A DNA stretch of 64,000 nucleotides from Lepisosteus oculatus (taxonomy: Eukaryota > Chordata > Actinopteri > Semionotiformes > Lepisosteidae): positions 14,687,817 through 14,751,816 of the forward strand of contig NC_090699.1 in the NCBI RefSeq assembly GCF_040954835.1, given 5' to 3'. This document shows positions 23,071 to 42,597 of this stretch, one piece after another. Position numbers and translations under genes: made by a program. How positions within the stretch are numbered: the first letter of the stretch is position 1; the number at the start of each line of letters is the position of its first letter. The notes beneath the pieces were generated by a model. That model was given only the letters and a program-made list of their open reading frames with translations. It had not been told where the DNA came from and searched no databases.

Positions 23071-23212
23071 TGTTGTATAAAGTATAAAGTATATAAAGTA
23101 TAAAGTATATGGCCAATAAAGTGATGTTATGTTATGCAGGCAGGCGCCACATGCGATCTGCCTGCGTCTTGAGAGCCGTAAAGAGCCCACCCCCCCCCCC
23201 CTCTGCCCACAG

Positions 23213-23872
23213 GAGCTGCGGAGGAGCCCGCCGTCGCCGAAGAGGAGCCCTCCGGGCCGGTTATCGTGAGGGTCTTCGATCAGGAGTGGTGTCGCTCCCT
23301 GTGGGGCCTGGAGGAGCCGGCCGGCGAGGCCGCGGCGGCGGCGGCCCTCGTGCCCGGGAGCGCCGAGGTGAAACCGTGCGCCGCGCCCGAGCGGGTCGTG
23401 GACCCCAGCGACATCAGCCCCAGCGCCCTGCACGCCGCCGTGAGGGACTCCCAGCTGAACATCGTCCAGGTGGAGGACGACGTCCCCGGGCTGGGCGCCT
23501 CCTGCCTCTACCTGGTCCCCTCCGCGCCGGGGGAGGGGGAGCAGGAGGAGGTGGGGGCCCCTCTCCGCGGTCGGGAGGCCGGGGCGGGGCCGGCCGAGGC
23601 CGAGGAGCCCGGGAAGAGAGAGCCCAAGGAAAACGGGCTCGTGCGGATTTACACGGGCGTGTGCGAGCAGCTCATGGCCCTGAACGAGGGGGACGGGAAT
23701 CTGGACCCCGGCCGGCACGCTCAGCGGGAAGCCGGACGGAACCCGCGATGCCCGCCGGCCTGCGCCCCCGCTGAATCGCTGTCCTGTCGGAGCGCTCGGC
23801 CTGGACGCAGCGCGGCAGAGCTCGGGCCCGGCGCGGATCTCGCCGCGGGGGAGAGCATCGCGCCTGTCAAGC
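23213..23872 (+). CDS. PRDM9-like gene: N-terminal module exon a
   Basis: Phase 1 in and out, 660 bases, acceptor after CTCTGCCCACAG and donor GC|GTAAGT. It encodes [15 protein letters not shown], then a Glu/Ala/Pro-rich acidic region, a segment with [13 protein letters not shown] and LYLV, and [16 protein letters not shown]. It is paralogous along its length to exon b. GC content is high, as for most exons of this gene. The function of the module is unknown; acidic and psi-K-x-E-like segments suggest a regulatory or SUMO-linked role, which is inference. Confidence 0.7.
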
Positions 23873-26800
23873 GTAAGTAGGGCTGCTGCCTCTCTCCACC
23901 AGGGCCAATCAGGCGCTGAGAGAGAGGCAGCAGACCAAATCTATTCTTCGAGTAGTCGGGCCCCCGAGTGCCCCCCCTACGCCTAGAGTAGACGTACGAC
24001 CCCCCACCCGTGAAAAGTTTTTGTAAAACAAAAATTAACTCCCGTCCTGGTTTGAGACTTTCATCCAGATGTTTCTTGAGAGAAGCCAGGGAATTGACTT
24101 CAACAACATGGCTGGGCTGCTTGTTCCACACCCCTACCAACCTTTGTGTAAAGTAAGACCCCACCCCCCCTCCTGGTAGAAGGATACTCCAGCAAGAGTA
24201 CCAGAGTATTTGGCTTCATCAGCATGGCGGTATATCTTGTTTCACACTCCTGCCACCCTTTGTGTAAAGGCTTACATGCTCTTCTCAGCTTTCTCAGTCA
24301 GACTAGGCTGTTGTGCATCTGGATGAAGGGGCTGCTCTGTATGTATCTCAGTATTGTCCCCACTTTATTCCCGGACTTCAGAAAGCCCAAACCCCCTGAC
24401 TGGGGGGGGGGGATCGTCCCAAGGAGAGGCACTTAGATGTTTTAGTGAAGCTGTTATAACACACAAGTAAGTTCTGGACCCCGAGATGAAGCTGAGCAAG
24501 TGAGTTTTATTGCACGCGAGGAACAGTACATTCAGAATTGCTCGAAGTTTATAGGTGCAGAGCTCCAGTTTATATAGCAAACTGCAGCTGTTTCTGACGC
24601 AAACTGTTACCTTGGTGATGGGGGGGGGAGGTCATCTGTGTTCGGACATTCCCAAGACCTTGAACACTTTGAATGGCCGGTCTCATCTTCCCACGGTTAG
24701 GGAGTCTCCAGCTCGCACTTGGGAATCTCTTATCAGTGAACTCCCATCCCTGCCGTACCTCCAAAGTGCTGGAGCGTGTTTTGTCCCAGAAGAAGTCTTT
24801 GTGCCGAAAGAAATTGGTTAACCTCACATCTCATAGCTTTCTTCAAAGCCCCGACGTCCAGAAATAAAATACACTCGTGGCCGACGGCTGATGGATCCGG
24901 CTGTGCGTGATCACTCGCTCATTCCTGGGCGTGTCCAGGCTGGGGCGGAAGGTTTCATCCAGTCGGCGAAGCTGCGTCTCGCCCCTCCTAGGGGCTGGCT
25001 GTGGAAGGTCCCCTCCCCGCTGCCCCGGGGCTGCGAGTGAGAGAGCCGTCTCCCCTGTCTCTCTGCAGGAGCCCGGGAGGAGGCCCTCGCCCGCAGCGCG
25101 CAGGGGCCGGGCCCCGTCATCAAGAGGGTCTTCGACCAGGAGTGGTGCAGCTCCCTGTGGAGCTCCGCCCAGCCGGCCTGCGAGAGCAGCAGGGTCCCCC
25201 GACCGGACCGCCGGGACGCTGCCCACGCCGGGGCAGGGGTCTCCGAGCTGCGGGGGGCCGCGGTGAAGCAGGAGGTCGATGAGCGGAGGGGGTTTCCCAC
25301 GGCGGCGCCGGGCTCCCACCTGAGCTTGGTCCAGGTTAAAGACGAGCGCCCTGACCTGGGCACTGCCCCTCTTTACTCTGCCCGTGCCCACCCTGCGCCA
25401 GGAGAGCGCCGGTCTCTCCGTGTGAAGGAGGATGTGTCCGGGCTGGCAGGGGGGCCCATCAAGAGGGAGGCGGTCGAGGAGGAGCTGGTGCAGGTGTGTA
25501 TGAACGCGGAGGACAGCAGGCCGGATTCCAGGCCTCAAGCGGAAAGGACGCCCCAGTGCGCGAGGATGCCCGCCAGCGACCGCAGGACCCCCGGAGGCGC
25601 CCGTGTGGCCTTCGAGCGGGCGTCTGAGTCGGTGCCCGCCCAGATCAAGCCCTTCCTGCGCAGGGTGAGGTACACGGTGTACCACGGGCCCGGGGCAGAG
25701 ACCGGGTGCAAGCAGGAGCTGGACAGGGAGGAGGGACAGGGGGAGCCCACCGTCGTCGTCGTGTGTAAGTGTCGCCGCCTCACTGCTTCCTTCAGCTTCC
25801 AGCTGGAGAGAGAGTTAGGAGCACCCAGGGCAGAGGTGAATGCAGAATACTTTCGGGTGGCAGGAGGGTAGAACAAGCTGCTCAGCCATGTTGTTGAAGC
25901 CGATACCCTGGCTTCTCTCCAGACACAGCTGGGTGAGACCCTCCAGTCAGGACAGGAGGCTCTTCTTTACACAAAGGGGGGGTTGGGGTGTGGGACAAGC
26001 TGCCTAGCTGTATTGTTGAAGCCGATACCCTGGCTGCTCTCCAGACACAGCTGGGTGAACTCCTCCAGTCAGGACAGGAGACCCTTCTTTACACAAAGGG
26101 GGGGTTGGGGTGTGGGACAAGCTGCCTAGCTGTATTGTTGAAGCCGATACCCTGGCTGCTCTCCAGACACAGCTGGGTGAGCTCCTCCAGTCAGCACAGG
26201 AGGCTCTTCTTTACACAGAGGGTGGTGGGAGTGTGGAACAAGCTGTTGTTGACACCTGTACTCTGGTTTCTCTCCAGAAACTGCGGGATGAGATGTCAAA
26301 AGGCGCAGAAAAATAACTATTTTGTTTACGTGCATCAGTGCTTCTCAAACTGCAGGCCTTGGAAATGCTTTTGTGGTTGCCCAGCTGTTGTCTAAGCTAT
26401 AGATTAAGGAAACGGCCTTGAGATAATGACTGGAATGTGTTGGCTCAAGGTCTCAGGCTCTGTGGAAGTGAGGCATGAGTTGACTTTGTAAAAGCTGCAG
26501 TACTGGGAGTCCGTTCATAACGAGGTCGTTAAGAGAAGGCCTGTTCCACTCTGAAACAAACCTGCCTGCGTCTTGCTGTGCAGTATCACAGAGCCAGAAA
26601 GCCCCAGCAGGTTTTGTCCAGTCTGTCCTGCAGGGCAGTCTCAATGCCATGCTGCTGTTTGTACAGAGCTCGGTAAAAGCAGAATCTGCAGGAAGCCGTC
26701 TCCTGCTCAGCTACTGAAGAATTTCCCACAGGAATAGCTCTCAGGCTCTGGATTGATCCTTTTAATCAGCTCAGGTGAGGCAGGTAGCCTTGTTGTGACA

Positions 26801-29800
26801 GAAGAGTTCTTGCTCCGGGATGAGAGTGAAAACAGATAGGCTTTATTATGTGCCTACAAGGACCGCCTCCAACGGTAGGGGTGTTCAGAGAATACAAAGC
26901 ACGCAGCTACCTTTAGACAGCCCAGTAACGTCAAGATTTCCATGGCTACAAGGAATTTGTCAGGGTGTATGGTTAAGATCGTGTTCAGAACAATTGGCCA
27001 TTAAGAGAAGTTGTGGTTATCTGTCTGCCCAGAATTCCAGAGGTCATGATGCTTGCCCTCCCTTACAGCCTTGAAATACGCTGAAGTTTCAAAGATAATC
27101 ACAATTCCCGAACACAGACCTGAGCCATGTAGATATACCCCAATCATCAGGATTATAGCTGTGGCACTTTTGGCCCTCGTCATAAATATGTTGGCCTCAA
27201 TCAGTGATATGTTCAGAAGTGTCAGGAGCATAGGTGCAGCTTTCAGCACCTATTACAGCACCATGTGCAGCCAGCAAGTAATCAAGAGCCACCCAGTTTT
27301 GCATAGCAACCGTTCGGAGAGCTACCATTTCATCGTTTATAGCTTTTGTCCCCTCAGAGGTTTCCTCAGCTAATTTTTCTCAACAAGCAGCCATGTTAAT
27401 ACATCCCCGAGCAAGCGTAGCTATCCCATACATGGGGAAAGAGATGGCACGGGATCGCTCGGTCTCCGTAATCTCCCGTTTAATTAGCAGCACCTATACC
27501 CATAGAACAGAACAACACATTCTCACTTTTTCGGCCAGGTCACAGTATTATTACACTGAACTGTATCTTAGAATACTGCTTCTTCCCTTTCGGACAAAAC
27601 ATTTATCACCTTAACAGCGGATTATCAGCCTAATAGAGGGTGGCCTTGAACTGTGATTGTAGTTCTGGTTTTCTGGAGTCTTTCTGGAGAAGTGTTGTGT
27701 GAGACCCCAGGACAAGTAAGGCACTAGCAGCCAAACAAGCTTGCATAGGCCAAAGGGCCTCTCCTTCCTCACCTTTGTGTGTTTGTTAATTGTGTTTGTT
27801 TTGGGCTTTTTTTTTTATTTTCCACAGTGCAAACAGGCGCCCAGGCACCTTGCAGAACGGGGTCCGGCAGCTGGCCTGTCCGTCAGATGAGAACCCCCAG
27901 AATGAGACCGTTGGCGCCCCTGAACACACCCCAGGTCATTTTTTCTGCTTTTTCAGCCTTTCTGCTGGTTATAGTCTAGTGCAGCGGTTCTCAAACTTTT
28001 TGGACCAAGTGCCACCCCTGATCAAACCAAGTGCCACCTCCAGGTCATCTTCTCATAGGAACCCCAGAAAATCTCAATGACCAAACATGACTCACACACG
28101 CCTATAATACCAAATTTTACTGAGCACTTAGTTCATTTGGATCGGAATGGCCTGTAGCTTTTTTCTGACACTTTCTAACACTAGCAGTGCTGTCTGTGTC
28201 AGGCTCAGTGTCCGAGCTAGTGTTGGCGGTCGGCGGGATTAACATACACACATTTCCTACCCTCAAACACAGTGCCAAAGCGAAAGTGTAAATTCACAGC
28301 GGAACTAAAAAACTCAGTTTCCGTGTTTTCGAAGTGGCAGAGCAGACTGGGAAGCTGAGTGTTTGATGTGCAAGCCTGCTACGTTTGTCTCCGTGGCAGA
28401 TAAAGGAGTAGTTGACTTGCAAGCTCTTGTTGACTCGGACAAACACAAAAAGGCCATTCGGGGAGAGGAGTTCGTCAACCAAATGAACAGATTCTTTTGT
28501 CAAATCTGGCAGCAAAAGAGTGGATGCTGTTATTGCAGCAGAGCGGGCTTATGCATTTCACACAGTTAAATCTCATCACAGTTACTTTACCAATGAACAT
28601 GAAACGTGGGGTATTTTGAAAACCCTCTCCATCCCCATCCCCTTTCCCAGACAAGGCAACAGGACAGTTCCTCAGGGTGTCCTCTTGTCTTGATGTGGCC
28701 GATGTATAATCCTGCTGGTGCTCAGCGGGTGTGCGTGATCTGTCTGAGCCGGCGTCTGTACTCTTGGCGTCTGTTCCTTTCAGCCAGGACATAGTACTTG
28801 ATTTTTGCGAGGTGTTCAATTTCAAGCTGCGTCTCTGGAAGCTCGAGAGGAGTCTGCACACTCGAGTATTAGCGCGCGCTGTATCGACGTAGCACAGTAC
28901 GTGCGCTGCGTATTTGACACACAAACGCATTTTTGCCCCCGTCTCAAGCTTTCTGAAACCGATTAAGTCAATTCCTGATGAAAACTTGAAATCATTTCAG
29001 CCAATTTTTAATTTAAAAAAAAAATTTTTTCAGTGCACACAACAAATTTCCAGAGTCGTCTGGCGTACCACCTGGGGGGTGCTCCGTGTACCACAGTTTG
29101 AGAACCACTGGTCCAGTGCTCACAACCCAGTTCTCTCACCCCCTCCCTGTGGCAGACATTCCAGTTCCGTCACAGGATGAACCGAGGGGCTGTGGTCCGT
29201 CTGTCCCGGGACCCTGCAGCTCCTGAGGGGGCCTCTGGCCCCGGGACCCTGCAGCTCCTGAGGGGCCTCTGGCCCCGGGACCCTGCAGCTCCTGAGGGGG
29301 CCTCTGGCCCCGGGACCCTGCAGCTCCTGAGGGGCCTCTGGCCCCGGGACCCTGCAGCTCCTGAGGGGGCCTCTGGCCCCGGGACCCTGCAGCTCCTGAG
29401 GGGGCCTCTGGCCCCGGGACCCTGCAGCTCCTGAGGGGGCCTCTGGCCCCGGGACCCTGCAGCTCCTGAGGGGCCTCTGGCCCCGGGACCCTGCAGCTCC
29501 TGAGGGGGCCTCTGGCCCCGGGACCCTGCAGCTCCTGAGGGGCCTCTGGCCCCGGGACCCTGCAGCTCCTGAGGGGGCCTCTGGCCCCGGGACCCTGCAG
29601 CTCCTGAGGGGGCCTCTGGCCCCGGGACCCTGCAGCTCCTGAGGGGGCCTCTGGCCCCGGGACCCTGCAGCTCCTGAGGGGGCCTCTGGCCCCGGGACCC
29701 TGCAGCTCCTGAGGGGGCCTCTGGCCCCGGGACCCTGCAGCTCCTGAGGGGCCTCTGGCCCCGGGACCCTGCAGCTCCTGAGGGGGCCTCTGGCCCCGGG

Positions 29801-32800
29801 ACCCTGCAGCTCCTGAGGGGGCCTCTGGCCCCGGGACCCTGCAGCTCCTGAGGGGGCCTCTGGCCCCGGGACCCTGCAGCTCCTGAGGGGGCCTCTGGCC
29901 CCGGGACCCTGCAGCTCCTGAGGGGGCCTCTGGCCCCGGGACCCTGCAGCTCCTGAGGGGGCCTCTGGCCCCGGGACCCTGCAGCTCCTGAGGGGGCCTC
30001 TGGCCCCGGGACCCTGCAGCTCCTGAGGGGGCCTCTGGCCCCGGGACCCTGCAGCTCCTGAGGGGGCCTCTGGTCCCGGGACCCTGCAGCTCCTGAGGGG
30101 CCTCTGGCCCCGGGACCCTGCAGCTCCTGAGGGGGCCTCTGGTCCCGGGACGGGCCGTCGGAGACCCCCTGAGACTGCGCCAGGCGATACCTCGGTGATC
30201 TCGAACCCTTTGTTCTGCACGCAGGGGGCCGCGGAGACCCGCCTCCCGACAGAGCGCGGCGCCGAGGCCGGATGCGGTGCGGCGCGAGCAGGTGAGAGCG
30301 CAGGGCGAGGGGGGGGCTGGCCGCATGGGGCTCCGGCGGGCCTCTGGCAGGGGTCCGGCTCGCCCTTCAGAGCCCAGAGTTGGAACACCCCCATCCTGCC
30401 TGCTCTCGTCAGACTGCGTGAGCGAGGGGCGGCCAAAACCGTCTGAGGGGTACTTCTGAGTGGAATGAAACAGGTGGGGGGGGGGGAGATTCCCAGCATT
30501 CCTTCATGGTGAGGCAGTCGGGATTTAGTGGGGAGGGACGCGTTTCCTGATTAGCAGGCTGGCTCACGAGAGAGAGAGATGGAGTGTAGGGTGTGTGTGG
30601 GGGACGGGTCGGTCCCGGAGAGACACTGGCCATAGGGAGCTTGTGGGGACGGGTCGGTCCCGGAGAGACACTGGCCATAGGGAGCTTGTGGGGACGGGTC
30701 GGTCCTGGAGAGACACGGGCCATAGGGAGCTTGTGGGGACGGGTCGGTCCTGGAGAGACACGGGCCATAGGGAGTGTGTTGGGGATGGGTCGGTCCCTTA
30801 GAGACACTGGCCATAGGGAGTGTGTGGGGACGGGTTGGTCCCGGAGAGACACTGGCCATAGGGAGTGTGTGGGGGACGGGTTGGTCCCGGAGAGACACTG
30901 GCCATAGGGAGTGTGTGGGGGACGGGTTGGTCCCGGAGAGACACTGGCCATAGGGAGTGTGTTGGGGATGGGTCGGTCCCTTAGAGACACTGGCCATAGG
31001 GAGTGTGTGGGGGACGGGTTGGTCCCGGAGAGACACTGGCCATAGGGAGTGTGTGGGGGACGGGTTGGTCCCGGAGAGACACTGGCCATAGGGAGTGTGT
31101 GGGGGACGGGTTGGTCCCGGAGAGACACTGGCCATAGGGAGTGTGTGGGGGACGGGTTGGTCCCGGAGAGACACTGGCCATAGGGAGTGTGTGGGGGACG
31201 GGTTGGTCCCGGAGAGACACTGGCCATAGGGAGTGTGTGGGGACGGGTTGGTCCTGGAGAGACACTGGCCATAGGGAGTGTGTGGGGGACGGGTTGGTCC
31301 CGGAGAGACACTGGCCATAGGGAGTGTGTGGGGACGGGTCGGTCCCGGAGAGACACTGGCCATAGGGAGTGTGTGGGGGACGGGTTGGTCCCGGAGAGAC
31401 ACTGGCCATAGGGAGTGTGTGGGGGATGGGTCGGTCCCGGAGAGACACAGGCCGTAATGAGAGCTGTGTTGGGGTCTTGGGGGGCAGGTCAGTCCGAGGG
31501 CAAGAGGTCCCATTCAGAGTCCTCCGAGGAAAGCAGCACCACAGGAGGGTACTGCCTCCGGAAGAAGCAGAGAGTCGATTACAGTGAGGAGCCAGAGCTC
31601 AGCGACTGCTCGGGTGAGTTTAACACCACTCAGCTTCCCACACCCCTACTCTTACTGACAGTGTCCTGGGATCTGGACTGACCAGCAGTCAGGACACCCC
31701 TACTCTTACTGACAGTGTCCTGGGGTCTGGACTGACCAGTCAGGACACCCCTACTCTTACTGACAGTGTCCTGGGATCTGGACTGACCAGCAGTCAGGAC
31801 ACCCCTACTCTTACTGACAGTGTCCTGGGATCTGGACTGACCAGTCAGGACACCCCTACTCTTACTGACAGTGTCCTGGGATCTTGACTGACCAGCAGTC
31901 AGGACACCCCTACTCTTACTGACAGTGTCCTGGGGTCTGGACTGACCAGTCAGGACACCCCTACTCTTACTGACAGTGTCCTGGGATCTGGACTGACCAG
32001 CAGTCAGGACACCCCTACTCTTACTGACAGTGTCCTGGGATCTGGACTGACCAGCAGTCAGGACACCCCTACTCTTACTGACAGTGTCCTGGGATCTGGA
32101 CTGACCAGCAGTCAGGACACCCCTACTCTTACTGATAGTGTCCTGGGATCTGGACTGACCAGCAGTCAGGACACCCCTACTCTTACTGACAGTGTCCTGG
32201 GGTCTGGACTGACCAGTCAGGACACCCCTACTCTTACTGACAGTGTCCTGGGATCTGGACTGACCAGCGGTCAGGACACCCCTACTCTTACTGACAGTGT
32301 CCTGGGATCTGGACTGACCAGCGGTCAGGACACCCCTACTCTTACTGACAGTGTCCTGGGATCTGTACTGACCAGCAGTCAGGACACCCCTACTCTTACT
32401 GACAGTGTCCTGGGGTCTGGACTGACCAGTCAGGACACCCCTACTCTTACTGACAGTGTCCTGGGGTCTGGACTGACAAGTCAGGACACCCCTACTCTTA
32501 CTGACAGTGTCCTGGGATCTGGACTGACCAGCAGTCAGGACACCCCTACTCTTACTGACAGTGTCCTGGGATCTGGATTGACCAGCGGTCAGGACACCCC
32601 TACTCTTACTGACAGTGTCCTGGGATCTGGACTGACCAGCAGTCAGGACACCCCTACTCTTACTGACAGTGTCCTGGGATCTGGACTGACCAGCGGTCAG
32701 GACACCCCTACTCTTACTGACAGTGTCCTGGGATCTGCAGTGATCAGTAACCATGGTTAATATATAAATTGGCTAATAGGCCTTGATTTATTGTCTCATC

Positions 32801-35800
32801 CGGTCCCCAGTCGCATTACTGGGTGAGTGTGTGGGGGACTCATGCCATACTGGGCCACTGGTTTGGAAGTTCTGGTCCAGAAAGAAGAGTGCCCACTACT
32901 GGTCCGCTAGCACCACTGTCTACAGCGACCTGGTGTCCAGGCCCCCCATCCCGTCGCTGTCCTGCCTGGTGCAGTGACCCGAAGGGGGGATCCTGCAGAG
33001 TGGCGCTCCGGCTGAATCCCTGTGTGTTCCCACAGGTCTTCTGGACCAGGAAGGAAGAGCGAAGAGCTCGGCTGAACAGACAAGGCAAGCAGGTGAGGAA
33101 GGCAGGGCTGAACCGCAGGAAACCTCGCATCTGTCGGGCTGTCTTGAGGGGTGTGTGGGGGTCTGGGGTACGGGATGGCCCATCGTGAGGGGTGTGTGGG
33201 GGTCTGGGGTACGGGATGGGCCGTCATGAGGGGTGTGTGGGGGTCTGGGGTACGGGACGGGCTGTAATGAGTGTGTGTGGGGCTCTGGGGTACGGGATGG
33301 GCTGTAATGAGTGTGTGTGGGGGTCTGGGGTACAGGACGGCCCATCGTGAGGGGTGTGTGGGGCTCTGGGGTACGGGATGGGCTGTAATGAGTGTGTGTG
33401 GGGGTCTGGGGTACAGGACGGCCCATCGTGAGGGGTGTGTGGGGGTCTGGGGTACGGGACGGGCCATCATGAGGGGTGTGGGGGGGTCTGGGGTATGGGA
33501 CGAGCCATCATGAGGGGTGTGTCGGGCTCTGGGGTATGGGACGAGCCATCATGAGGGGTGTGTCGGGCTCTGGGGTACGGGACAGGGCATTATGAGGGGT
33601 ATGTGGGGGTCTGGGGTACAGGACGGCTGTCAGGACGGTTGTGGGGCTCTGGGGTAGGGGAGGGGCCATCATGAGGGGTGTGTCGGGCTCTGGGGTACGG
33701 GACGGGCTGTAATGAGTGTGTGTGGGGGTCTGGGGTACGGGACGGGCCGTCGTGAGAGGTGTGTGGGGGTCTGGGGTACGGGACAGGCCGTCGTGAGGGG
33801 TGTGTGGGGGTCTGGGGTACGGGACGGGCCGTCGTGAGGGGTGTGTGGGGGTCTGGGGTACAGGACGGGCTGTAATGAGTGTGTGTGGGGCTCTGGGGTA
33901 CAGGACGGGCTGTAATGAGTGTGTGTGGGGCTCTGGGGTACAGGACGGGCCGTCGTGAGGGGTGTGTGAGGGTCTGGGGTACAGGACGGGCTGTAATGAG
34001 TGTGTGTGGGGGTCTGGGGTACAGGACGGGCCGTCGTGAGGGGTGTGTGGGGGTCTGGGGTACAGGACGGGCTGTAATGAGTGTGTGTGTGTATATTGGA
34101 GTTTTTGTGACAGTTCTGTCTGAGGACAAGAGGTTCCAGCAGCAGAGCACCACCAGCACCACCAGCACCACCAGCATCACCAGCACCACCACCAGCAGCA
34201 GCACCCCAAGAGAGAACAACCCGCAGAAGAAACGACGAGTCCACTTCAGCGAGCTGGCGGAGTCCGACGAATACTTCTGTGAGTGAGTCTTTGGCCAAGA
34301 CGGGCAAATTCACACGCCACACAGCTCGGCCTCCTGTTCTGACGGGGCCTTTGAAGTCCTGGGAGCCCCGTCCCTCTGCCTCTAGGGGCCCTTCTCGAAC
34401 CCGTTCCTACCGACGAGCCGGCTGGGTCTCCCCGCGCCCAGTGTCTGACGAGGTGTGGGGGCTCAGGGATCAAGTCAGCATAGGGGGGTCCCCAACCCTG
34501 GTCGCAGAGAGCCCGGGTTCCGACTCCCATCTCGAACCTGAATTTACTGCACCCTGGGCCCCCTAGGACAAGTAGAGCTCATCTGCACCCCAAAAACCAT
34601 TTACTTGCCTACAGGCCTGTAGATCCCTGACTTTTGCTCCGGGTGTGGAAGAGTCTGCAGCAGTAGAATGGGGAGTCTTCAGGCTGCACTGATGTGCCTG
34701 GTGTTGTCTGACCCTGCGCCGTGTCCGCTGTCCCCGTCTGTTCCAGTCTGCCCGGAGTGCAAGTTCTTCTTCTTCGAGGAGTGCGAGCAGCACGGCCCGG
34801 CCCGATTCGTCAAAGACACCCGGGCCGAACTGGGCCTGGAGCGGAGGGCTCGGCTCACGCTGCCTCCGGGCCTGAGCCTGCGGGACTCCAGTATCCCCGG
34901 AGCGGGGCTGGGGGTCTTCAACGTGGACTCACTCGTCCCCAGAGGGGCGCACTACGGGCCCTACGAGGGGGAGCCCACCAGCAAGGAGGAGGCCATGCTC
35001 AGTGGGTACTCCTGGATGGTGAGTCACTGAGGCCCGAGCTCACAGCCCCGCTGAGACCTGTGCTGTCGGCTCGTACCCTGTACCTGCTATAAGTGCTCAC
35101 ACTGGTATTGACTCGTACAGTTGGGTTTATGAGTCCTCAGTGTGGATACTGAGACCAGGGCCTGTAGCGCTGTCAGCTCGTACCCTGTACCTGCTATAAG
35201 TGCTCACACTGGTATTGACTCCTACAGTTGGGTTTATGAGTCCTCAGTGTGGATACTGAGACCAGGGCCTGTAGTGCTGTCAGCTTGTACCCTGAACCTG
35301 CTATAAGTGCTCACACTGGTATTGACTCGTACAGTTGGGTTTATGAGTCCTCAGTGTGGATACTGAGACCAGGGCCTGTAGCGCTGTCAGCTCGTACCCT
35401 GTACCTGTTATAAGTGCTCACACTGGTATTGACTCCTACAGTTGGGTTTATGAGTCCTCAGTGTGGATGCCGAGGCCAGAACCCATCAAGCTTTTGTGTG
35501 GACACACTGATCTTAAAGCTGAAAGCATGGCTAGTATAACACAGCACAGTGACACTCTATGGGCTTCGCAGAACTGGTTGTGCCATTCCCCTATTAGGCA
35601 TTTAGCCACTAGGAGCTGCAGAGTGGTGCTCTTGCAAAGTAAATTCACGTTCAACTCTTTACTCACTGACTGACTCTATAGCCCTACAGGCAGGAGGTCA
35701 GTGTGGAGCGGTTTGGACTCATCCTTCACCTTAGGGGTCCCCAGGGTCCCTAGGTTCTACGGGAGCCCTGGTCTAGTCATTGGGGGTGTCTCCAGACCTG

Positions 35801-38800
35801 GTTCTGGGGAGCCCCGGTCCAGTCAGCTCAGGCATCTGTCTCCTTACCTGCTCTGAGAGACCTGGTCCAGTCAGTACAGGGGTTCGCATCCCTGGTTCTG
35901 GAGAGCCAATAGTGAAGTCAGTACCGGTGTCTGCAGCCTTGCTCCTCTTCTAGTGATCTAGAGCATTTATTTGTAAAGTTTACCGTCACCTGTAACCTGC
36001 TGTTAAACAATCAGGCAAGTAATCTATTCTCATCAATTCAGTCAAGAAATGTCCAGTCTTTGAAGGCTGAAGGGTGTGTATATTTTCATTTGAAATGACA
36101 TCAAACAAACCAGCTGTTTAATTGAACAATGCAATGGTTCCATATCTATAGAAATTGGGTGAGCTGTTAAATGGTAGTGTTTTGTTCATTCTTGTGTTTA
36201 TAATCGCACCCTGCCACCCGCGCGCGGACCCTCAAGGAGAGTTTGATGAGTGTATAACTGGAAGTATTTGATACAACAGGAAGTCAGATATTTGCGTATT
36301 TTTGCGTATATTAATACTGCACTGCATTTCCACAGATCTACAAGGGAAAGAATCAAGTTGAGTACATCGATGCCAAGAGCGAGACCAGCTCAAACTGGAT
36401 GAGGTGAGAACTGCCGACATGGGACTCCGGCGTGGAGTATCTGCTTGAGCCTCTTCCAAGTGGCTTCTGTTTTAGCTGAGATGGTAGCTCCTGACCAGCC
36501 AGTGAGGCGGCCTTTCCCCGCAACGTTTAATCCTGACTGTGATGGTCCAGTCCGCCCCACGCCTCCTGTGTCTCGTCGGGCCAGGGGGCCTGGGTTCTGT
36601 AGTGTTGAGGGGACCAGGAAACGTGGGACTCCACTGCCTGCCCCCCTTATAGAGCTGGACTGGGGCAACAGGGGTACAGGACCTCACTGTCGGTGGGACT
36701 CGAACCCACAGCCCTCCAGTTGACTCGCCCACTGTGCGAGTCTTGTGTTGTACTCGAGAGAGAAAATGGGGCACGTTACACGACGCGTGTTAAAGGGAGG
36801 TGCCGGCGATGCCTAACAGGGAACGAGAAAGCTGTAAATAAGACCAAGTGGCATCTCCGAGGGCGGACACGCAGCGACGTCCGCGACGGGTTCGACCCCG
36901 AAATGACCCCGCCCGCTGCCTTCTGCCCCTGGCTGTTCCGCTGTCTTCCAGCGCGCCCCTGCGGCGCGCGGCGCACCGGTCCCCAGCCCTCGGGCCCTAA
37001 ACCGCCCCCTAGAGCCGAGAGCGCAGTTTGTCGTGCCACGCTGTCGTGGGCGAGGCGTTGCAAATTCCAAAACTGGCCCCGCTCACGGCTTCGGAACCAC
37101 GGAAGCTGTTCGGTAAGACATTGTGTTTGTGTAGCAGTCATTCTGCCCCTTTTCTGTCCTTTAATTCCCTTTCCACAAGATGGCTGTTCTTAACTGCAAA
37201 ACAAAAATGGTGGAAACCCTGTCCCTGTGCCTGATAACGACGACGATTTTGATCTCATTTTAAATCACTTTTTCCCCATTTCTATCCTCCTATCTCTTAC
37301 TTTCTCCTTATGTATGTGTGCTTCTGTCTGGGCACAAGTCTGTCTCTTCAGTGTTTAACTGCTGTATTGTGAAGCTGGGGCACAGTAACATGAGAGGGGG
37401 GCTTTCAGCCAGTCAACTCTATTGGATAGTTACACGTAGATTCATCGAAGGGTCTCATCCCTGTTTCTTGAAGGAAGCTGGGGTATTGGCTTCAGCAACC
37501 TGATAGGGTAGTCCGATACTTCCATAGCCCTTTGTGTAGAAAAGTGGCTTCTATTCTCAGTTTTGGATGACTCTTCCACTTAATTTCCACTTGTTTCCTC
37601 TGATTTGTGTTTCAGTGAAGAAAGTAATTCAGATTGTCAATGGCCTGGGACACTTGCGTCAGGCCCCCTCGTTAGTCGTCTCTGTTCAGGATGAAAGAGA
37701 CTCAGTTCCTCCAGTCTGTCAGTGTAGGACACTCCCTTCAGACTAAAGAGACTCAGTTCCTCCAGCCTGTCAGTGCGGGGCATTCCCTTCAGACTAAAGA
37801 GACTCATTTCCTCCAGCCTGTCAGTGTGGGAAACTCCCTTCAGACTAAAGAGACTCAGTTCCTCCAGCCTGTCAGTGTGAGGCATTCCCTTCAGAATAAA
37901 GAGACTCAGTTCCTTCTGTCTGTCTCTCGCCCTCTCAGGTTTGTCAACTGTGCCCGCAACGAGGCAGAGCAGAACCTGGTGGCCTTTCAGTACTGCGGCC
38001 AGATCCTGTTCCGCACCTGCAAGGCCATCTCACCGGGCTGTGAGCTGCTGGTGTGCTACGGGGAGGAGTACGCCAGACACCTGGGCATCACCTGGGACTA
38101 CATCTGGGAGAGGAAGTGCAGGCCCACAGGTGATGACACATGCCTATCTCACGCTCTCTCACGCACACATCTCTTCCTCAAAGACTCTCTGCTTATTGTG
38201 CTCTTTCTCTCCAGGAGAGAGTCTTGAGGTGCTTCCTTGTCCGAAGTGCCCGGTCACCTTCATTGCCAAGTTTCACTTCTTCAAGCACATCAAAAGGATC
38301 CACCCCCAGGAGTACTCGCGGCTGATGACCTCTGGATCGCTCGCCACTCAGAGCCTAGAGCCGCCGAAGAGACAACAGAGCCCTGCGGTCCCGGAGGTGC
38401 CCAGTGCCCCTACAAAGGCTCAGAGCACCGAAGATACTCGGGACTCTCATAGCAGGAAATGCTTGGATTCAGAAAGTCAACTGAAAAGGCACCAGCAGGC
38501 TCCCATAAAGGCTGATGACTACTTGTGTAAGTTGTGGTGTCTCAGGGGGAATAGATAAATGTAATAAGTACGAAAGTACTCACACCACACACTCTTCTTT
38601 TATTTTCGTGAGGTTTCCTCCTTTTCTTTCGTTCGTCCGTCTTCCAAACCAGTTCCCAATCCGTTTTCTCTGTCCGTGTTCAGTCCATGTTCCAAAAGTT
38701 CGTAAAATCCAACAAATCCGCGCGGTGTCCAAATCACAAGCCGTATACCGTTATCCTTTATTTATTCCGTAAATCCGTTGTCCTTAAATCTTTGTCCACT

Positions 38801-41800
38801 CCAACGAAACTCCACTATCTTCTCCAAAACGCATTCACCTACTGGCTTCCGCCCGGTTCACTGTTTCCGGGGCATATACAGTATATTTTGTTTCCTGATG
38901 AGACCCACCTGCGTCTCGTTGTCTTTCAGACTGAGCCCTTTCCATCTGCGGGTCAGCTGGTTTCTCTTAGCGGCCATCTTGGTCAGGTCTAAGTCAAGTA
39001 TAGTGAGCAGATCGTTCCTAAAATACCTGTCCTGGATGACCCTTCCTCTGGTCCTCTTACAAAGTAAATCTTCTGACCGAGACGTTGTGACTGGATAGGA
39101 CCACGCCAGTGCACGCCACCACAAGTGGAACCCTGCTAACATGGCACCTTATTTGTTTGTGTTTTAAGTGGTCTGACTTTCATCTTCCCGAACCAATTTT
39201 TTTTTTCCTTTACCTGGCGGCTTTCTCTCAAAGCCAGCTCTCAGTACCTCTCATCTCCTTCCCCTTTTCGCTCTAACTTCAGCCTTGACCAAAACCACGG
39301 TAGGAAGCCCACTGCAGTCTGACAGTCCTTTAGGGAATCTGTATCCCACTTTTAACACCACGATGTGACAACGCCTGTACACCACCATTATCTCAGCCCT
39401 GCCAGCACATTATCTTAGTTTTTCCGCATTTTAAATGCGTCCGTCTTTCATTGTTCAGATCGGGTGCACATTCCAGGTTTTTTTTTCCATTAGTAGCCCT
39501 TCTCTGAAAGGCTTTCTTTCAAAGCCACCTTCTCTCTGCTCATCGAAATCTTTGTTTTGCTAGTTGACATCTTTTTTTTTTTTACTTTAACAACCTGACC
39601 TGGAAGGGATATGTTGCAAAGTGCGTGTTCACTTTTTTTTCTACTCGGTGACCAGTCTAACGCTGTGTTATTCGTCTGTCCCTGGAAGTCTGTGCAGAGT
39701 GCAAATCTTCCTTCATCAAGGAGTGCAAGCAGCACGGCCCGGCCACCTTCATCGGGGACACCTGGGCCGAAGTGGGCCTGGAGCGGAGGGCTCGGCTCAC
39801 GCTGCCTCCGGGCCTGAGCCTGCGGGACTCCAGTATCCCCGGAGCGGGGCTGGGGGTCTTCAACGTGGACTCGCTCGTCCCCAGAGGGGCGCACTACGGG
39901 CCCTACGAGGGGGAGCCCACCAGCAAGGAGGAGGCCATGCTCAGTGGGTACTCCTGGATGGTGAGTCACTGAGGCCCGAGCTCACAGCCCCGCTGATACC
40001 TGTGCTGTCGGCTCGTACCCTGAACCTGCGATAAGTGCTCACACTGGTATTGACTCGTACAGTTGGGTTTATGAGTCCTCAGTGTGGATACTGAGACCAG
40101 GGCCTGTAGTGCTGTCAGCTCGTACCCTGAACCTGTTATAAGTGCTCACACTGGTATTGACTCCTACAGTTGGGTTTATGAGTCCTCAGTGTGGATACTG
40201 AGACCAGGGCCTGTAGTGCTGTCAGCTCGTACCCTGTACCTGCTATAAGTGCCCACACTGGTATTGACTCGTATACCCAACTCTGTAAGACCACAGCGAG
40301 GATAATTAGGATGATGTTACCCCCTGAAAAGAAAGAGTGAATGCAGAACTTTGTAAATTAACCAGTTAGCAGTTTTATTCAAATACATGACGGGCATATC
40401 TGCAGAAGCCTTGTGGGTAATTAATGGCAAAGGCAGGCTGCAGAAACAGGTGCTAGTCAAACAAATTCAGAAATGCACACTGTGCCAAAGTGACTCGCTC
40501 AGCGGGTTTTTATACTGATGAAAGGCATCTGGCCGCACCCGTTTAGTTTCTGCACTAGCTGTCCTTTCGACACGCTGGCCGCACAAAGGTAGGTGGAAAC
40601 TACAGGGAAGTGTATTTAGAAGAAACCGTAAGAGGCACCTTCTTTACACCGAGGAAGGTGGGGGTGTGGAACCGCCTGTCCAGCCATGTTGGTGCAGCCG
40701 ATAGATACCCTGACTTCTATCAAGAAACATCTGAGGGAGATCATCCAAGCAATTGGCAACAACTGAGAACCCAACGGGCTCGTGAGGCAGACCAGCCCCG
40801 TCTTGTTTGACCTGTCCCCTGCTCTCCCGAAAGCTGCTGCTTGGGGCGTGCCTGTTGACACTGTGCTGTTTCCCCAGATCTACAAGGGAATGAAAAATAT
40901 CGAGTACATCGATGCCAAGAGCGAGACCAGCTCAAACTGGATGAGGTGAGAACTGTCTGCAGCTGCTGTACGGAAGAGGAGCCCACTAGTCACAGTCTCT
41001 CTGACCCAGCTTTAGCAGTCATGCTCTTCCCGAGAGGGAGGGGCCCCTGCAGTGGAATACTGTCCCCCTGCCCCTGTGTGCAGACGCTGCCGTCAGCCCG
41101 CATAATAATAATAATAATTAATAATAATTAATAATTGATTACACTTATATAGCGCTTTTCTGTACACTCCACTCAAAGCGCTTTACAGGTAATGGGGATC
41201 CCCTCCACCACCACCAGTGTGCAGCCCCACCTGGATGATGCGACGGCAGCCCCCACACAGCAGCTATCAGTGGGGAGGAGAGCAGAGTGATGTAGCCAAT
41301 TCATAGATGGGGATTATTAGGAGGCCATGATTTTTGTACTTGAAAGGAATAGGTGAGGCTTATTTCAGGCTGAAAAGAAAAGAAGCCATTTGTACTTGCT
41401 AAGAATACGTTTTTGTACTAATAAACCAGAGAAGAGCTGTACACACAGTGACACGTTTGTCGATTTTCAGTGCGTACAGATGGCACCACTCTCTTCCTGT
41501 CTTGTTGTTTCTCCAATGTATGAATCAGTCTGAGTAAAAGTCTGTTTCTTTTGCACTTGTTTTGGGATTTTGCATACTTACATCAGTAAATTCTGTTCAG
41601 GACTTAGTTCCTTCAGTTTGTCAGTGTGGGACACTCCCTTCAGTCTAGAGAGACTCAGTTCCTCCAGCCTGTCAGTGTGGGACACTCCCTTCAGAATAAA
41701 GAGACTCAGTTCCTTCAGCCAATCAGTTTAGGACACTCCCTTCAGAATAAAGAGATTCAGTTCCTTCAGCCTGCCAGTGCAGGAAACTCCCTTCAGACTA

Positions 41801-42597
41801 AAGAGACTCAGTTCCTCCAGCCTGTCAGTGTGGGACACTCCCTTCAGGCTAAAGAGACTCGGTTCCTTCAGTCTGTCTCTCACCCTCTCAGGTTTGTCAA
41901 CTGTGCCCGCAACGAGGCAGAGCAGAACCTGGTGGCCATTCAGTACCGTGGCCAGATCCTGTTCCGAACCTGCAAGGCCATCTCGCCGGGCTGTGAGCTG
42001 CTGGTGTGCTACGGGGAGGAGTACGCCAGACACCTGGGCATCACCTGGGACTACATCTGGGAGAGGAAGTGTAGGCCCACAGGTGATGACACATGCCTCT
42101 CTCACGCACACATCTCTTCCTCAAAGACTCTCTGCTTATTGTGCTCTTTCTCTCCAGGAGAGAGTCTTGAGGAGTTCCCTTGTCCGAAGTGCCCGGTCAC
42201 CTTCATTGCCAAGTTTCACTTCTTCAAGCACATCAAAAGGATCCACCCCCAGGAGTACTCGCGGCTGATGACCTCTGGATCGCTCGCCACTCAGAGCCCG
42301 GAGCCGCCGAAGAGACAGCAGAGCCCTGCGGTCCTGGAGGCGCCCAGTTCCCCTGCGGAGGATCAGAGCACCGAAGATATTCCGGACCCCCTCCGCTGCT
42401 CCCACTGCGGGAAGCGGTTCGGCTCGGAGCGCCGCCTGAAGACGCACCAGGAGACCCACCGGGGAGAGGGACCGTCTCCGAGTCCCAGCGGCGAGGAGCG
42501 CGAGAGGACATACCGCTGCGCGCAGTGCGGCAAGAGCTTCGAGAAGCTGGGCGGCCTCAAGAGACACAAACATGCGCATACCGCAGAAAGGCCGTAG
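23213..42597 (+). CDS. PRDM9/PRDM7-like gene with two tandem PR/SET domains
   Basis: Proposed exons: 23213-23872, 25069-25764, 27828-27934, 30225-30291, 31488-31613, 33036-33092, 34114-34278, 34747-35018, 36336-36403, 37939-38129, 38215-38526, 39689-39960, 40878-40945, 41892-42082 and 42158-42597. All junctions are AG/GT with matching phases. With the candidate first exon the frame holds for 1238 residues. Order of parts: two N-terminal modules, two SSXRD-like basic exons, PR/SET 1 (about 635-812) with C2H2 knuckle, PR/SET 2 (about 916-1093) with knuckle, and two C2H2 fingers. PRDM9-family proteins are nuclear histone H3 methyltransferases (K4/K36). The PR/SET exon set and CxxC...CxxxH pre-SET knuckle match PRDM9 clearly. 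No KRAB domain is recognisable and the finger array is very short. Exons 27828 and 30225 are the weakest; skipping both also preserves the frame. The alternative is two separate transcripts, each using one cassette. Confidence 0.75.
23885..24175 (-). mobile_element. LINE 3' tail fragment, minus strand
   Basis: The minus strand reads [17 protein letters not shown], then SLASLKKHL, the same family as at 6580 and 12245. It lies in the first large intron of the PRDM9-like gene. Confidence 0.55.
24450..24850 (-). mobile_element. LTR-like repeat, copy 2
   Basis: Direct-orientation partner of 21230-21730. This copy keeps about 50 bases (GAGTTTTATTGCACGCGAGG and following) that copy 1 has lost. Confidence 0.45.
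25069..25764 (+). CDS. PRDM9-like gene: N-terminal module exon b
   Basis: Phase 1 in and out, 696 bases; acceptor after CTCTCTGCAG, donor GT|GTAAGT. Encodes [15 protein letters not shown] near its start, [13 protein letters not shown] aligning with [13 protein letters not shown] of exon a, then several psi-K-x-E/D sites (VKQE, VKDE, VKED, IKRE, CKQE) of SUMO-acceptor type. Exons a and b are tandem duplicates. The equivalent exon of the ZNF gene at 48273 has the same phase-1 entry and VIERVFGQDWSSALW. Confidence 0.7.
25865..26310 (+). repeat. Tandemly amplified LINE tail, about 122-bp unit
   Basis: Four successive copies of the LINE-tail family (GTTGAAGCCGATACCCTGGC then CTCCAGACACAGCTGGGTGA), each ending with CTTCTTTACACA. 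The repeat-tail family has become a small tandem array inside an intron. Confidence 0.75.
26795..27600. repeat. LTR-like repeat, uncertain
   Basis: GATAGGCTTTATTATGTGCC near the start, similar in type to the other LTR-like repeats. No coding remains were recognised. Named only on general composition. Confidence 0.25.
27828..27934 (+). CDS. PRDM9-like gene: possible linker exon
   Basis: The acceptor TTTTCCACAG after a T-rich tract and the donor CCCCAG|GTCATT bound 107 bases that read through in phase from exon b (phase 1 in, phase 0 out). The encoded segment is Pro/Arg-rich and resembles nothing I know. A different frame looks equally protein-like, so this exon is tentative. Confidence 0.35.
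27982..29110 (-). mobile_element. Deleted hAT-family DNA transposon
   Basis: Terminal inverted repeats CAGCGGTTCTCAAAC and GTTTGAGAACCACTG bound 1129 bases, flanked by 8-bp target duplications GTCTAGTG and GTCCAGTG (7 of 8 match). Inside, on the plus strand, codons near 28524-28585 read [20 protein letters not shown], a motif of hAT transposases with a ZBED/SCAND3-like relationship. Stops and frameshifts make it non-autonomous. It sits in an intron of the PRDM9-like gene. Confidence 0.85.
29200..30155 (+). repeat. 34-35-bp GC-rich minisatellite in intron
   Basis: About 27 copies of GGGACCCTGCAGCTCCTGAG followed by GGGGCCTCTGGCCCC. The units are 35 bases (five G) or 34 bases (four G), so frames shift between copies. 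It is very G/C-rich with repeated CCCGGG. Confidence 0.95.
30225..30291 (+). CDS. PRDM9-like gene: possible linker exon 2
   Basis: Acceptor TGCACGCAG and donor GCAG|GTGAGA bound 67 bases, phase 0 in and phase 1 out, compatible with the exons at 27828 and 31488. Ala/Arg/Glu-rich ([14 protein letters not shown]). No homologue recognised; tentative. Confidence 0.35.
30585..31455 (+). repeat. 45-46-bp minisatellite in intron
   Basis: About 19 copies of GTGTGTGGGGGACGGGTTGG followed by TCCCGGAGAGACACTGGCCA and TAGGGA. Period 46 or 45 depending on the G run. Long minus-strand frames here are repeat artefacts. Confidence 0.95.
31488..31613 (+). CDS. PRDM9-like gene: SSXRD-like exon a
   Basis: Phase 1 in and out, 126 bases. 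Encodes [14 protein letters not shown] and then [19 protein letters not shown]. This resembles the end of the SSXRD region of mammalian PRDM9 ([20 protein letters not shown]): a Y-x-LR plus basic cluster followed by an acidic stretch. It is paralogous to the exon at 34114 (shared SE-x-KR start, KK-x-RV core). Role inferred as the nuclear, chromatin-associated basic segment. Confidence 0.6.
31625..32745 (+). repeat. 51/54-bp minisatellite in intron
   Basis: About 21 copies of GTCCTGGGATCTGGACTGAC, then CAGCAGTCAGGACACCCCTA and CTCTTACTGACAGT. 54- and 51-base units differ by one AGC triplet, so frames stay open on both strands; not a gene. Confidence 0.95.
33036..33092 (+). CDS. PRDM9-like gene: short exon
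   Basis: Acceptor GTTCCCACAG and donor GCAG|GTGAGG, 57 bases, phase 1 in and out, encoding [18 protein letters not shown]. It contains a DQE reminiscent of the N-terminal module, but this may be chance. It keeps the frame whether included or skipped. Confidence 0.45.
33140..34085 (+). repeat. 41-bp minisatellite in intron
   Basis: About 23 copies of GTGAGGGGTGTGTGGGGGTC followed by TGGGGTACGGGACGGGCCATC, alternating with a GTAATGAGTGTGTG type. Confidence 0.94.
34114..34278 (+). CDS. PRDM9-like gene: SSXRD-like exon b
   Basis: Phase 1 in and out, 165 bases. [11 protein letters not shown], an expanded Ser/Thr tract encoded by AGCACCACC repeats, then [20 protein letters not shown]. The end joins the next exon to give DEYFFCPEC, which aligns with DDDYLYCEMC of human PRDM9, so this exon stands where SSXRD meets the PR/SET domain. 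The KKRR cluster could serve as a nuclear localisation signal (inference). Confidence 0.72.
34747..38526 (+). CDS. PR/SET cassette 1 with post-SET knuckle and decayed finger
   Basis: Exons 34747-35018, 36336-36403, 37939-38129 and 38215-38526 (272, 68, 191 and 312 bases). The pre-SET knuckle [16 protein letters not shown] keeps CxxC, C and H. The core contains [61 protein letters not shown] and [10 protein letters not shown]. Relative to human PRDM9, Y276 (GPYEG) and Y357 (CYGEEY) are kept while Y341 is F. The last exon has the post-SET knuckle [20 protein letters not shown]. After that, [18 protein letters not shown] is a finger that has lost three zinc ligands compared with cassette 2. The exon ends DDYLC at a strong donor (TTGT|GTAAGT, phase 1), the same phase with which cassette 2 begins. 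Confidence 0.85.
35060..35480 (+). repeat. 107-bp tandem repeat in cassette 1 intron
   Basis: About four copies of a roughly 107-base unit (CAGCTCGTACCCTGTACCTG, then AGTGCTCACACTGGTATTGA and ATGAGTCCTCAGTGTGGATA). The matching intron of cassette 2 has about 2.5 copies (40005-40275), so the duplication carried the intron. Confidence 0.9.
36640..36770 (-). mobile_element. tRNA-related SINE fragment, minus strand
   Basis: The minus strand has GGGTTCGAGTCCCACC, a B-box/T-loop motif, in a context that does not fold as a full tRNA. It lies in an intron of the PRDM9-like gene. Confidence 0.35.
37690..37925 (+). repeat. 51-bp minisatellite before cassette 1 exon 3
   Basis: About 4.5 copies of GAGACTCAGTTCCTCCAGCC followed by TGTCAGTGTGGGACACTCCC and TTCAGACTAAA. 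It runs to within about 15 bases of the acceptor at 37938; the same arrangement occurs in cassette 2. Confidence 0.9.
38527..39688. other. Intron between the two PR/SET cassettes
   Basis: 1162 bases from the donor GTAAGT after 38526 to the acceptor CCTGGAAG before 39689. It contains no SSXRD-like exon, start codon in promoter context or poly(A) signal that I can see. That favours reading through rather than two independent genes. T-rich tracts near 39198, 39480 and 39570. Some sequence may be old LTR (CTTCTTTTATTTTCGTGAGG). Confidence 0.5.
39689..42597 (+). CDS. PR/SET cassette 2 with post-SET knuckle and two C2H2 fingers
   Basis: Exons 39689-39960, 40878-40945, 41892-42082 and 42158-42597; the first three have exactly the lengths of cassette 1 (272, 68, 191). 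The pre-SET knuckle is [16 protein letters not shown]. The remaining core is nearly identical to cassette 1, with Y276 and Y357 positions kept and Y341 as F (QILFRTC). The post-SET knuckle [20 protein letters not shown] is followed by two intact fingers, [20 protein letters not shown] and [20 protein letters not shown], and a stop at 42595. Mammalian PRDM9 has a long near-identical finger array; here there are only two dissimilar fingers, so sequence-specific DNA targeting of the usual kind is unlikely. Confidence 0.87.
40005..40275 (+). repeat. 107-bp tandem repeat in cassette 2 intron
   Basis: Two to three copies of the same unit as 35060-35480, directly after the duplicated first PR/SET exon. 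Confidence 0.9.
40635..40765 (+). mobile_element. LINE 3' tail fragment
   Basis: GGTGGGGGTGTGGAACCGCC, then CAGCCATGTTGGTGCAGCCG and CAAGAAACATCTGAGGGAGA: the family at 6580. Present in the cassette 2 intron but not at the same place in cassette 1. Confidence 0.5.
41100..41340 (+). repeat. Dispersed repeat (TATATAGCGCTTTTCTGTAC type)
   Basis: ACACTTATATAGCGCTTTTC, then CAAAGCGCTTTACAGGTAAT, CACCTGGATGATGCGACGGC and GGGGATTATTAGGAGGCCAT. A common fish interspersed repeat by its look; AT-trinucleotides precede it. Family not assigned. Confidence 0.65.
41615..41885 (+). repeat. 51-bp minisatellite before cassette 2 exon 3
   Basis: About five copies of the unit described at 37690-37925, again ending just before the acceptor (41891). 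Confidence 0.9.

What the first reader, a model, noticed from the sequence alone, without database searches (positions are those of the whole stretch)
34747..42597. A PRDM9-like gene with two complete PR/SET domains in one reading frame
Two full PR/SET cassettes lie 1.16 kb apart on the same strand. Their first three exons have identical lengths (272, 68, 191) and identical phases. The last exon of cassette 1 (38215-38526) ends in a strong GTAAGT donor in phase 1, exactly the phase of the first exon of cassette 2. The junction gives DDYL-F-CAEC, which matches how the SSXRD-type exon meets PR/SET in cassette 1 (DEYF-F-CPEC) and in human PRDM9 (DDDYLYCEMC). No promoter, start or SSXRD-like exon lies between the cassettes. 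A tandem double PR/SET protein would be new to me; known PRDM proteins have one PR/SET domain.
Basis: partly seen in the sequence, partly recalled or inferred. Interest (0 to 1): 0.93.

Follow-up and report, generated by a model that had tools for sequence, protein, structure and literature searches.

The report
Gar PRDM9-like gene, two PR/SET domains
A PRDM9-related gene of the spotted gar carries two complete histone-methyltransferase (PR/SET) domains in one reading frame, joined by an exon that looks like the scar of an old internal duplication; RefSeq already predicts this protein, but my paper searches found none that describes it.

Summary
Two PR/SET cassettes with exon lengths 272/68/191 lie 1162 bp apart in one frame. 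The window is Lepisosteus oculatus: the conceptual double protein is 100% identical over 100% to RefSeq 'PRDM9-like isoform X5' (P0001), and isoform X2 (P0121, standing for 5 sequences) is double too. The lists of three protein searches show no single-cassette spotted-gar product.

What I add: exon 38215-38526 is a chimera. Its larger part is homologous to the zinc-finger exon, into a decayed finger (0 of 500 shuffles). Its last ~22 nt match the end of an SSXRD exon (random 9-mers 3e-5). So a tandem duplication probably joined two exons and with them two PR/SET units in frame. Cassette 1 groups with Atractosteus, cassette 2 outside (95/89): the duplication probably predates the gar split. Gene conversion seems to have kept blocks 95-100% alike.

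It is a partial PRDM9 paralog: no KRAB hit, Y341 is F in both domains, two tandem fingers. Expression was not seen. Other predicted proteins also have several PR/SET domains (11 of 270, gar included): a variant, not a new category.

The parts
23212..23874 (+). 5' exon of the gene: N-terminal module PVIxRVFxQxW, in isoforms X5 and X2
   Evidence: tblastn of P0121, 100% over 221 aa
25041..25871 (+). Open frame holding a second copy of the N-terminal module (motif at 25116); part of P0121 (X2), absent from P0001 (X5)
   Evidence: read by eye; motif; not among the 97%-filtered rows
27827..27934 (+). Coding exon LQTGAQAP...
   Evidence: tblastn, 97% over 36 aa
30225..30291 (+). Coding exon [12 protein letters not shown]...
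   Evidence: read by eye
31488..31613 (+). First SSXRD-like exon ([16 protein letters not shown]...)
   Evidence: aligns to the bowfin stretch of P0155, 0 of 2000 shuffles; no Pfam SSXRD hit
33036..33092 (+). Coding exon [18 protein letters not shown]
   Evidence: read by eye
34102..34278 (+). Second SSXRD-like exon ([17 protein letters not shown]), phase-1 donor, joins cassette 1; X5 starts at 34102, X2 at 34114
   Evidence: 0 of 2000 shuffles against bowfin
34747..35018 (+). Cassette 1 PR/SET exon A1
36336..36403 (+). Cassette 1 PR/SET exon B1
37939..38129 (+). Cassette 1 PR/SET exon C1 (Y341 position is F)
38215..38526 (+). Chimeric exon D1: zinc-finger-exon part to about 38504 (one intact finger 38238-38303, then a decayed one), SSXRD-exon end from about 38505 to 38526, phase-1 GTAAGT donor
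39689..39960 (+). Cassette 2 PR/SET exon A2
40878..40945 (+). Cassette 2 PR/SET exon B2
41892..42082 (+). Cassette 2 PR/SET exon C2 (Y341 position is F)
42158..42597 (+). Last exon D2: isolated finger 42181-42246, tandem fingers 42397-42459 and 42517-42579, stop

Best explanation
One PRDM9-like gene with an internal tandem duplication of its PR/SET unit. Shown: the two cassettes, the open joined frame, matching RefSeq models, and the mixed likeness of exon 38215-38526. Inferred: the duplication (or a later deletion between two whole copies) joined a break inside the first tandem finger of the zinc-finger exon to a break near the 3' end of an SSXRD exon. The fused exon kept the SSXRD donor in phase 1, so splicing into the second PR/SET exon was in frame at once and the first cassette lost its stop. 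Cassette 1 shares derived residues with Atractosteus that cassette 2 lacks, so the event probably predates the split of the two gar genera. Gene conversion later evened out blocks of the two copies. The product is one chain of 1010-1238 residues: N-terminal module(s), SSXRD-like stretches, PR/SET-1, a 108-residue linker, PR/SET-2 and two terminal fingers. Most likely work (inference): a chromatin factor that brings two tethered, probably weakened or changed, PR/SET domains to DNA. It is probably not a hotspot-setting PRDM9; that role would fall to the separate gar PRDM9 with a KRAB-like start and 12 fingers (P0009).
For: Double protein identical to RefSeq X5 and contained in X2. Open frame and splice sites. 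Exon D1: 60-nt block with the first tandem finger of D2, 0 of 500 codon shuffles. The tail APIKADDYL scores 11.6 on an SSXRD-end model and -15.6 on a finger-linker model; the DNA match to the end of exon 34116-34278, donor included, was reached by 0 of 1000 shuffles. Tree: c1+Atractosteus 95/89, c2 outside, the three together 100/100. Residues 6F, 19R and 132C shared by c1 and Atractosteus are found in 0, 1 and 8 of 213 other domains; the c2 residues S, T and R in 130, 26 and 114. Conversion: exon A codons 36-90 differ at 1 of 165 bases and the next intron is 304 of 313 alike, against 19 of 105 bases different in codons 1-35 and 18-28% agreement just upstream.
Against: No transcript evidence could be read; RefSeq X models are predictions. 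The A2 acceptor is AAG. Atractosteus spatula's one model found (P0002) has a single PR/SET, joining A-C like cassette 1 to D like cassette 2, so either that model skips the inner block or that species lacks it. dN/dS between the cassettes is 0.54 (0.0543/0.1017 rounds to 0.53), so constraint on both copies is not proven. The introns before A1 and A2 show only weak likeness (whole introns 2 of 200 shuffles, last 100 nt 135 of 1000). On the whole 32-residue tail, the likeness to the bowfin SSXRD stretch is not significant (p 0.11) and to the gar one only p 0.016; the case rests on the last nine residues. The function is inferred only. The structure model was too poor to use (mean pLDDT 44).
Confidence: 0.72

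Rival explanations
1. The true main product is single: C1 (38129) is spliced straight to D2 (42158), or SSXRD (34278) to A2 (39689), and the double form is rare or a prediction artefact.
For: These junctions keep the frame (A+B+C = 531 nt, D1 = 312 nt; lengths, remainders). The Atractosteus model P0002 has exactly the A1-B1-C1-D2 make-up: it agrees with cassette 1 in exons A-C at 15 sites to 1, and with cassette 2 in exon D at 9 to 2, Fisher p = 1e-4.
Against: No spotted-gar model of a single form in the lists. D1 keeps a good phase-1 donor and an open frame although its second finger is dead; cassette 2 keeps an open frame.
Confidence: 0.19
2. Two neighbouring genes: cassette 1 ends at the stop 10 codons past 38526, and cassette 2 is a 5'-truncated duplicate or pseudogene.
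For: In-frame stop just past the donor. D1's second finger is decayed. Cassette 2 has an odd residue at a conserved site (I at 129, where 199 of 213 other domains have F).
Against: RefSeq models run through. The exon end is SSXRD-like with a matching donor. No AATAAA or ATTAAA in 38521-39690, but none was found after cassette 2 up to 43600 either, so this is weak. No 5' exon for cassette 2 was seen.
Confidence: 0.07
3. Assembly artefact (uncollapsed haplotypes).
For: The cassettes are alike, and reads could not be inspected.
Against: Likeness stops 12-16 nt before exon A and inside introns, coding dS is 0.10, and cassette 1 and Atractosteus form a clade without cassette 2.
Confidence: 0.02

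Closest known systems
PRDM9, complete (KRAB-SSXRD-PR/SET-zinc-finger array), e.g. gar P0009 and the solved PRDM9 chains
   Same: PR/SET sequence (4ijd, E 2e-68), SSXRD-like exon before PR/SET, isolated finger and then C-terminal fingers
   Different: Two PR/SET domains, no KRAB hit, Y341 is F, two tandem fingers and not a long array
Partial PRDM9 paralogs of fish (PRDM9-beta and the partial holostean ortholog of Baker et al. 2017, PMC5519329, passages seen)
   Same: No KRAB found and a catalytic tyrosine changed, as in that class
   Different: Two PR/SET domains; SSXRD-like exons still present. Whether this is the very gene that Baker et al. listed I could not tell
Predicted multi-PR/SET proteins of catfish (P0003, P0006, P0011, P0013, P0016, P0122), red deer (P0014) and the snail Physella (P0123, P0126)
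   Same: Two or three complete PR/SET domains in one predicted chain
   Different: 6 of 7 catfish linkers end in residues like an SSXRD end (such as HNDYLY, DDEFLY), as would fit serial whole copies or merged neighbouring genes (not tested); the gar linker is a finger exon fused to an SSXRD end
Tandem PRDM9-alpha copies of salmonids (PMC11703093, passages seen)
   Same: Tandem copies with gene conversion between them
   Different: Described there as separate gene copies, most of them incomplete or broken

Membership tests
PRDM9, complete | PR/SET domain of PRDM9 type | tested here: met
PRDM9, complete | KRAB domain | tested here: not met
   P0121 has no KRAB hit at E 0.1; P0009 has a weak one, below the cut-off, in the same call
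PRDM9, complete | SSXRD motif | tested here: inconclusive
   No Pfam SSXRD hit, but P0009 and P0155 show none either among the rows listed, so Pfam is blind here; two exons align to the bowfin stretch (0 of 2000 shuffles each)
PRDM9, complete | Tyrosines 276, 341, 357 | tested here: not met
   Y, F, Y in both cassettes; position 341 is Y in 199 and F in 15 of 214 other domains, P0002 (F) included
PRDM9, complete | Long tandem C2H2 array | tested here: not met
   Two tandem fingers plus one isolated finger per cassette
PRDM9, complete | Directs meiotic breaks | not testable with these tools
   No recombination or ChIP data
Multi-PR/SET PRDM9-like protein | Two or more complete PR/SET domains in one open frame | tested here: met
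Multi-PR/SET PRDM9-like protein | Expressed as one chain | not testable with these tools
   No RNA or protein data

The most novel reading that the evidence does not exclude
An obligate double PR/SET PRDM9 paralog, born in one step from an exon-fusing duplication before the living gars split, and kept ever since as a tethered pair of methyltransferase domains that acts like a built-in dimer.
Probability: 0.4. Interest if true: 0.75.

Novelty: new variant of a known kind. Interest (0 to 1): 0.56.

Why it matters
If expressed, it would be a vertebrate histone methyltransferase with two tethered PR/SET domains, testable for bivalent or dimer-like action. It also records how an exon-fusing duplication can double a domain in frame, possibly in a single step, in a gene family tied to recombination and speciation. 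And it suggests that multi-PR/SET gene models need not all be wrongly merged neighbours.

Tried and rejected
I first took the DDYL likeness for chance, because the exon tail reads as a decayed finger. The finger-linker model failed and the SSXRD-end model fitted, so I dropped that view. Controls that were less clean: the tail also scored above shuffles against another zinc-finger gene (0.4% of shuffles reach it) and, less, against the plain intron 38560-39688 (1.8%), so single alignment tests are somewhat loose here. Structure prediction of P0001 gave mean pLDDT 44 and pTM 0.27 (collected again); I drew nothing from it and ran no fold search. The search of the window's own genome was tried seven times and never answered. 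Intron comparison was mixed: A-B introns beyond the shared block no likeness (80 of 100 shuffles), B-C introns some (0 of 100). Paper searches (9 of 10 used): PRDM9+teleost+SSXRD+zinc finger 7 papers; PRDM9+'two SET domains' 0; PRDM9+'two PR'+zinc finger+fish 83, of which 15 listed; Prdm+'two PR domains' 1, on PRDM16, passage seen, not a parallel; PRDM9+Lepisosteus 4; four of Prdm/PR domains/evolution/multiple PR/metazoa 59, of which 10 listed; gar rates and dates 30, of which 8 listed, none opened; PRDM9+'internal duplication'+SET domain 2, one on an 89-base exon duplication in primate PRDM7, passages seen; PRDM9+gar+holostean+zinc finger 1. Passages were also seen in PMC5519329, PMC11600626 and PMC11703093. 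Papers outside that library and supplements were not searched. A first exon script used shifted borders and was replaced. The first motif-model script stopped with an error after its first results; one search replaces it.

Full report
What was checked. The eight exons named or implied by the finding are present with the stated lengths, phases and strand. The joined frame of exons A1 to D2 is open. Both PR/SET domains match Pfam PRDM2_PR (E 7e-46 and 2e-44), and cassette 1 matches solved PRDM9 chains (4ijd, 2e-68). The two cassettes share 94.3% over 601 nt (34735-35331 with 39673-40273) and 92.4% over 749 nt (37696-38444 with 41649-42387).

What organism and gene. A protein search with the conceptual double protein (603 aa) returned P0001, 'histone-lysine N-methyltransferase PRDM9-like isoform X5 [Lepisosteus oculatus]', 1010 aa, 100% identical over 100% of the query. 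A second search found P0121, isoform X2, 1238 aa, which stands for 5 member sequences and also holds both domains. I saw only that representative. X2 and X5 differ in a 5' exon and in four residues made by two acceptors 12 nt apart before the second SSXRD-like exon (read). Three searches admit protein lengths of about 332-1055, 555-1767 and 177-563. Their lists (120 of 806, 120 of 186 and 100 of 100 hits) show no spotted-gar protein with a single cassette of this gene; the first two scored only the candidates sharing most words. RefSeq X names are predictions, and I could not see what RNA support they have.

The joining exon. Exon 38215-38526 begins as the zinc-finger exon: 60-nt windows up to about 38435 are 87-100% like the matching part of 42158-42597. 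Beyond 38444 similarity falls, but a 60-nt ungapped block with the first tandem finger of D2 remains (score 43 against a shuffle mean of 21.7, 0 of 500). That finger has lost both cysteines and its last histidine. The final stretch, APIKADDYL, does not behave like a finger linker: -15.6 on a model of 341 distinct linkers, whose lowest real score is 4.4. It does behave like the residues before PR/SET in PRDM9-like proteins: 11.6, against a median of 20.0 for the real ones and a maximum of 3.9 for finger linkers; random 9-mers reach it at 3e-5. The SSXRD-end sets came from 238 of the 270 proteins (149 distinct 9-mers for the 8-position version, counts; the number for the 9-position version was not printed). 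Left out were the two gar models and rows whose match did not start at the first cysteine. In the 8-position version, 233 of 160,956 windows in the 270 proteins reach the score of PIKADDYL, 205 of them at a PR/SET junction; many of the other 28 look like SSXRD ends by eye. At DNA level, the end of D1 with its donor matches the end of exon 34116-34278 with its donor (0 of 1000 shuffles); 13 of the last 19 coding bases agree (binomial 2e-4 with an assumed 27% background). The whole 32-residue tail gives a mixed picture: finger of D2 0 of 2000 shuffles, exon 34116 p 0.0055, gar SSXRD p 0.016, bowfin SSXRD p 0.11, exon 31488 p 0.53. I read the exon as a fusion of a finger exon with an SSXRD exon, whose donor it keeps.

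Age and later history. In 253 aligned residues 28 differ between the cassettes. In exons A-C, Atractosteus spatula P0002 agrees with cassette 1 at 15 sites and with cassette 2 at 1 (at 1 more all three differ); in exon D with cassette 1 at 2 and with cassette 2 at 9 (Fisher p = 1e-4). At site 6 cassette 1 and Atractosteus have F and cassette 2 has S; of 213 other domains none has F and 130 have S. At 132 they have C against R (8 and 114 of 213). At 19 they have R against T (1 and 26). Other sites point the other way: at 7, 10, 13, 95 and 129 it is cassette 2 that departs from the common residue. A tree of 32 domain rows, picked by me from 216, puts cassette 1 with Atractosteus (95/89) and cassette 2 outside, all three together 100/100. 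So cassette 2 probably branched off before the two genera split. One model stands for all of Atractosteus, and conversion can mislead. Conversion is suggested by the patchwork: codons 1-35 of exon A differ at 19 of 105 bases, codons 36-90 at 1 of 165, and the following intron is 304 of 313 alike, while sequence just upstream of exon A agrees at only 18-28%. Over 253 codons dS is 0.102 and dN 0.054.

Domain content. Y276 and Y357 are kept; the Y341 position is F in both cassettes and in P0002. Among 214 other domains (P0002 included) it is Y in 199 and F in 15 (the numbering is my own count, recalled from mammalian PRDM9, and fits the motifs aligned). P0121 has no KRAB or SSXRD Pfam hit; P0009 and P0155 show no SSXRD hit there either, so that test is blind. 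Two SSXRD-like exons, 31488-31613 and 34116-34278, each align with the bowfin stretch of P0155 (0 of 2000 shuffles each). D2 has two tandem fingers. The N-terminal module is doubled too. So three parts of this gene are present twice.

Against what is known. Baker et al. 2017 (PMC5519329, passages seen) show two alternative PRDM9 forms in holosteans and a partial spotted-gar ortholog without KRAB and SSXRD; the partial holostean ortholog has a changed catalytic residue. No passage that I saw speaks of two SET domains in one protein. Whether theirs is this gene I cannot say: their ZF table uses arrays of at least four tandem fingers. Of the 270 proteins gathered here, 11 have two or more complete PR/SET domains: two gar models, six catfish, one red deer and two of the snail Physella. 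That is what three searches listed, not a census. A paper on teleost PRDM9 (PMC11600626, passages seen) reports strong PRDM9-alpha amplification in catfishes, which fits merged or serial copies there. Six of 7 catfish linkers end in SSXRD-end-like residues.

How it may work. Shown: architecture and sequence. Inferred: a two-domain chain is made; both domains fold (they are close to solved PRDM9 in sequence; the structure model was too weak to help); the F at 341 changes or weakens methyl transfer; the two tandem fingers give little DNA specificity. I expect a chromatin role outside hotspot choice. Single forms made by exon skipping remain possible, because these junctions keep the frame, and the outer halves (A1-C1 and D2) are those that match Atractosteus best.

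Noticed in passing
window 23260, 25116, 48296 (+): A module PVIxRVFxQxWxxxLW occurs twice in this gene and once before a run of five C2H2 fingers (49989-50387); pairwise 0 of 2000 shuffles, no Pfam hit over it in P0121. Possibly a gar zinc-finger-gene N-terminal domain.
   Followed up: partly
window 31488-31613 and 34102-34278 (+): The SSXRD-like exon is present twice in one gene; the first copy lacks the DDYL-type end.
   Followed up: partly
window 29122-30221, 30599-31552, 31632-32834, 33135-34123, 34955-35575, 37645-38046, 39897-40410, 41598-41999: Minisatellite arrays (units 35, 46, 54/51, 41, 107, 51 nt) fill many introns; the 107- and 51-nt arrays are shared by both cassettes.
   Followed up: no
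P0009 and P0001 (contig length 66802294 for both): The 12-finger gar PRDM9 with a weak KRAB hit sits on a contig of the same length as this gene, so possibly the same chromosome.
   Followed up: no
P0123, P0126 (Physella acuta): Snail predicted proteins with three complete PR/SET domains.
   Followed up: no
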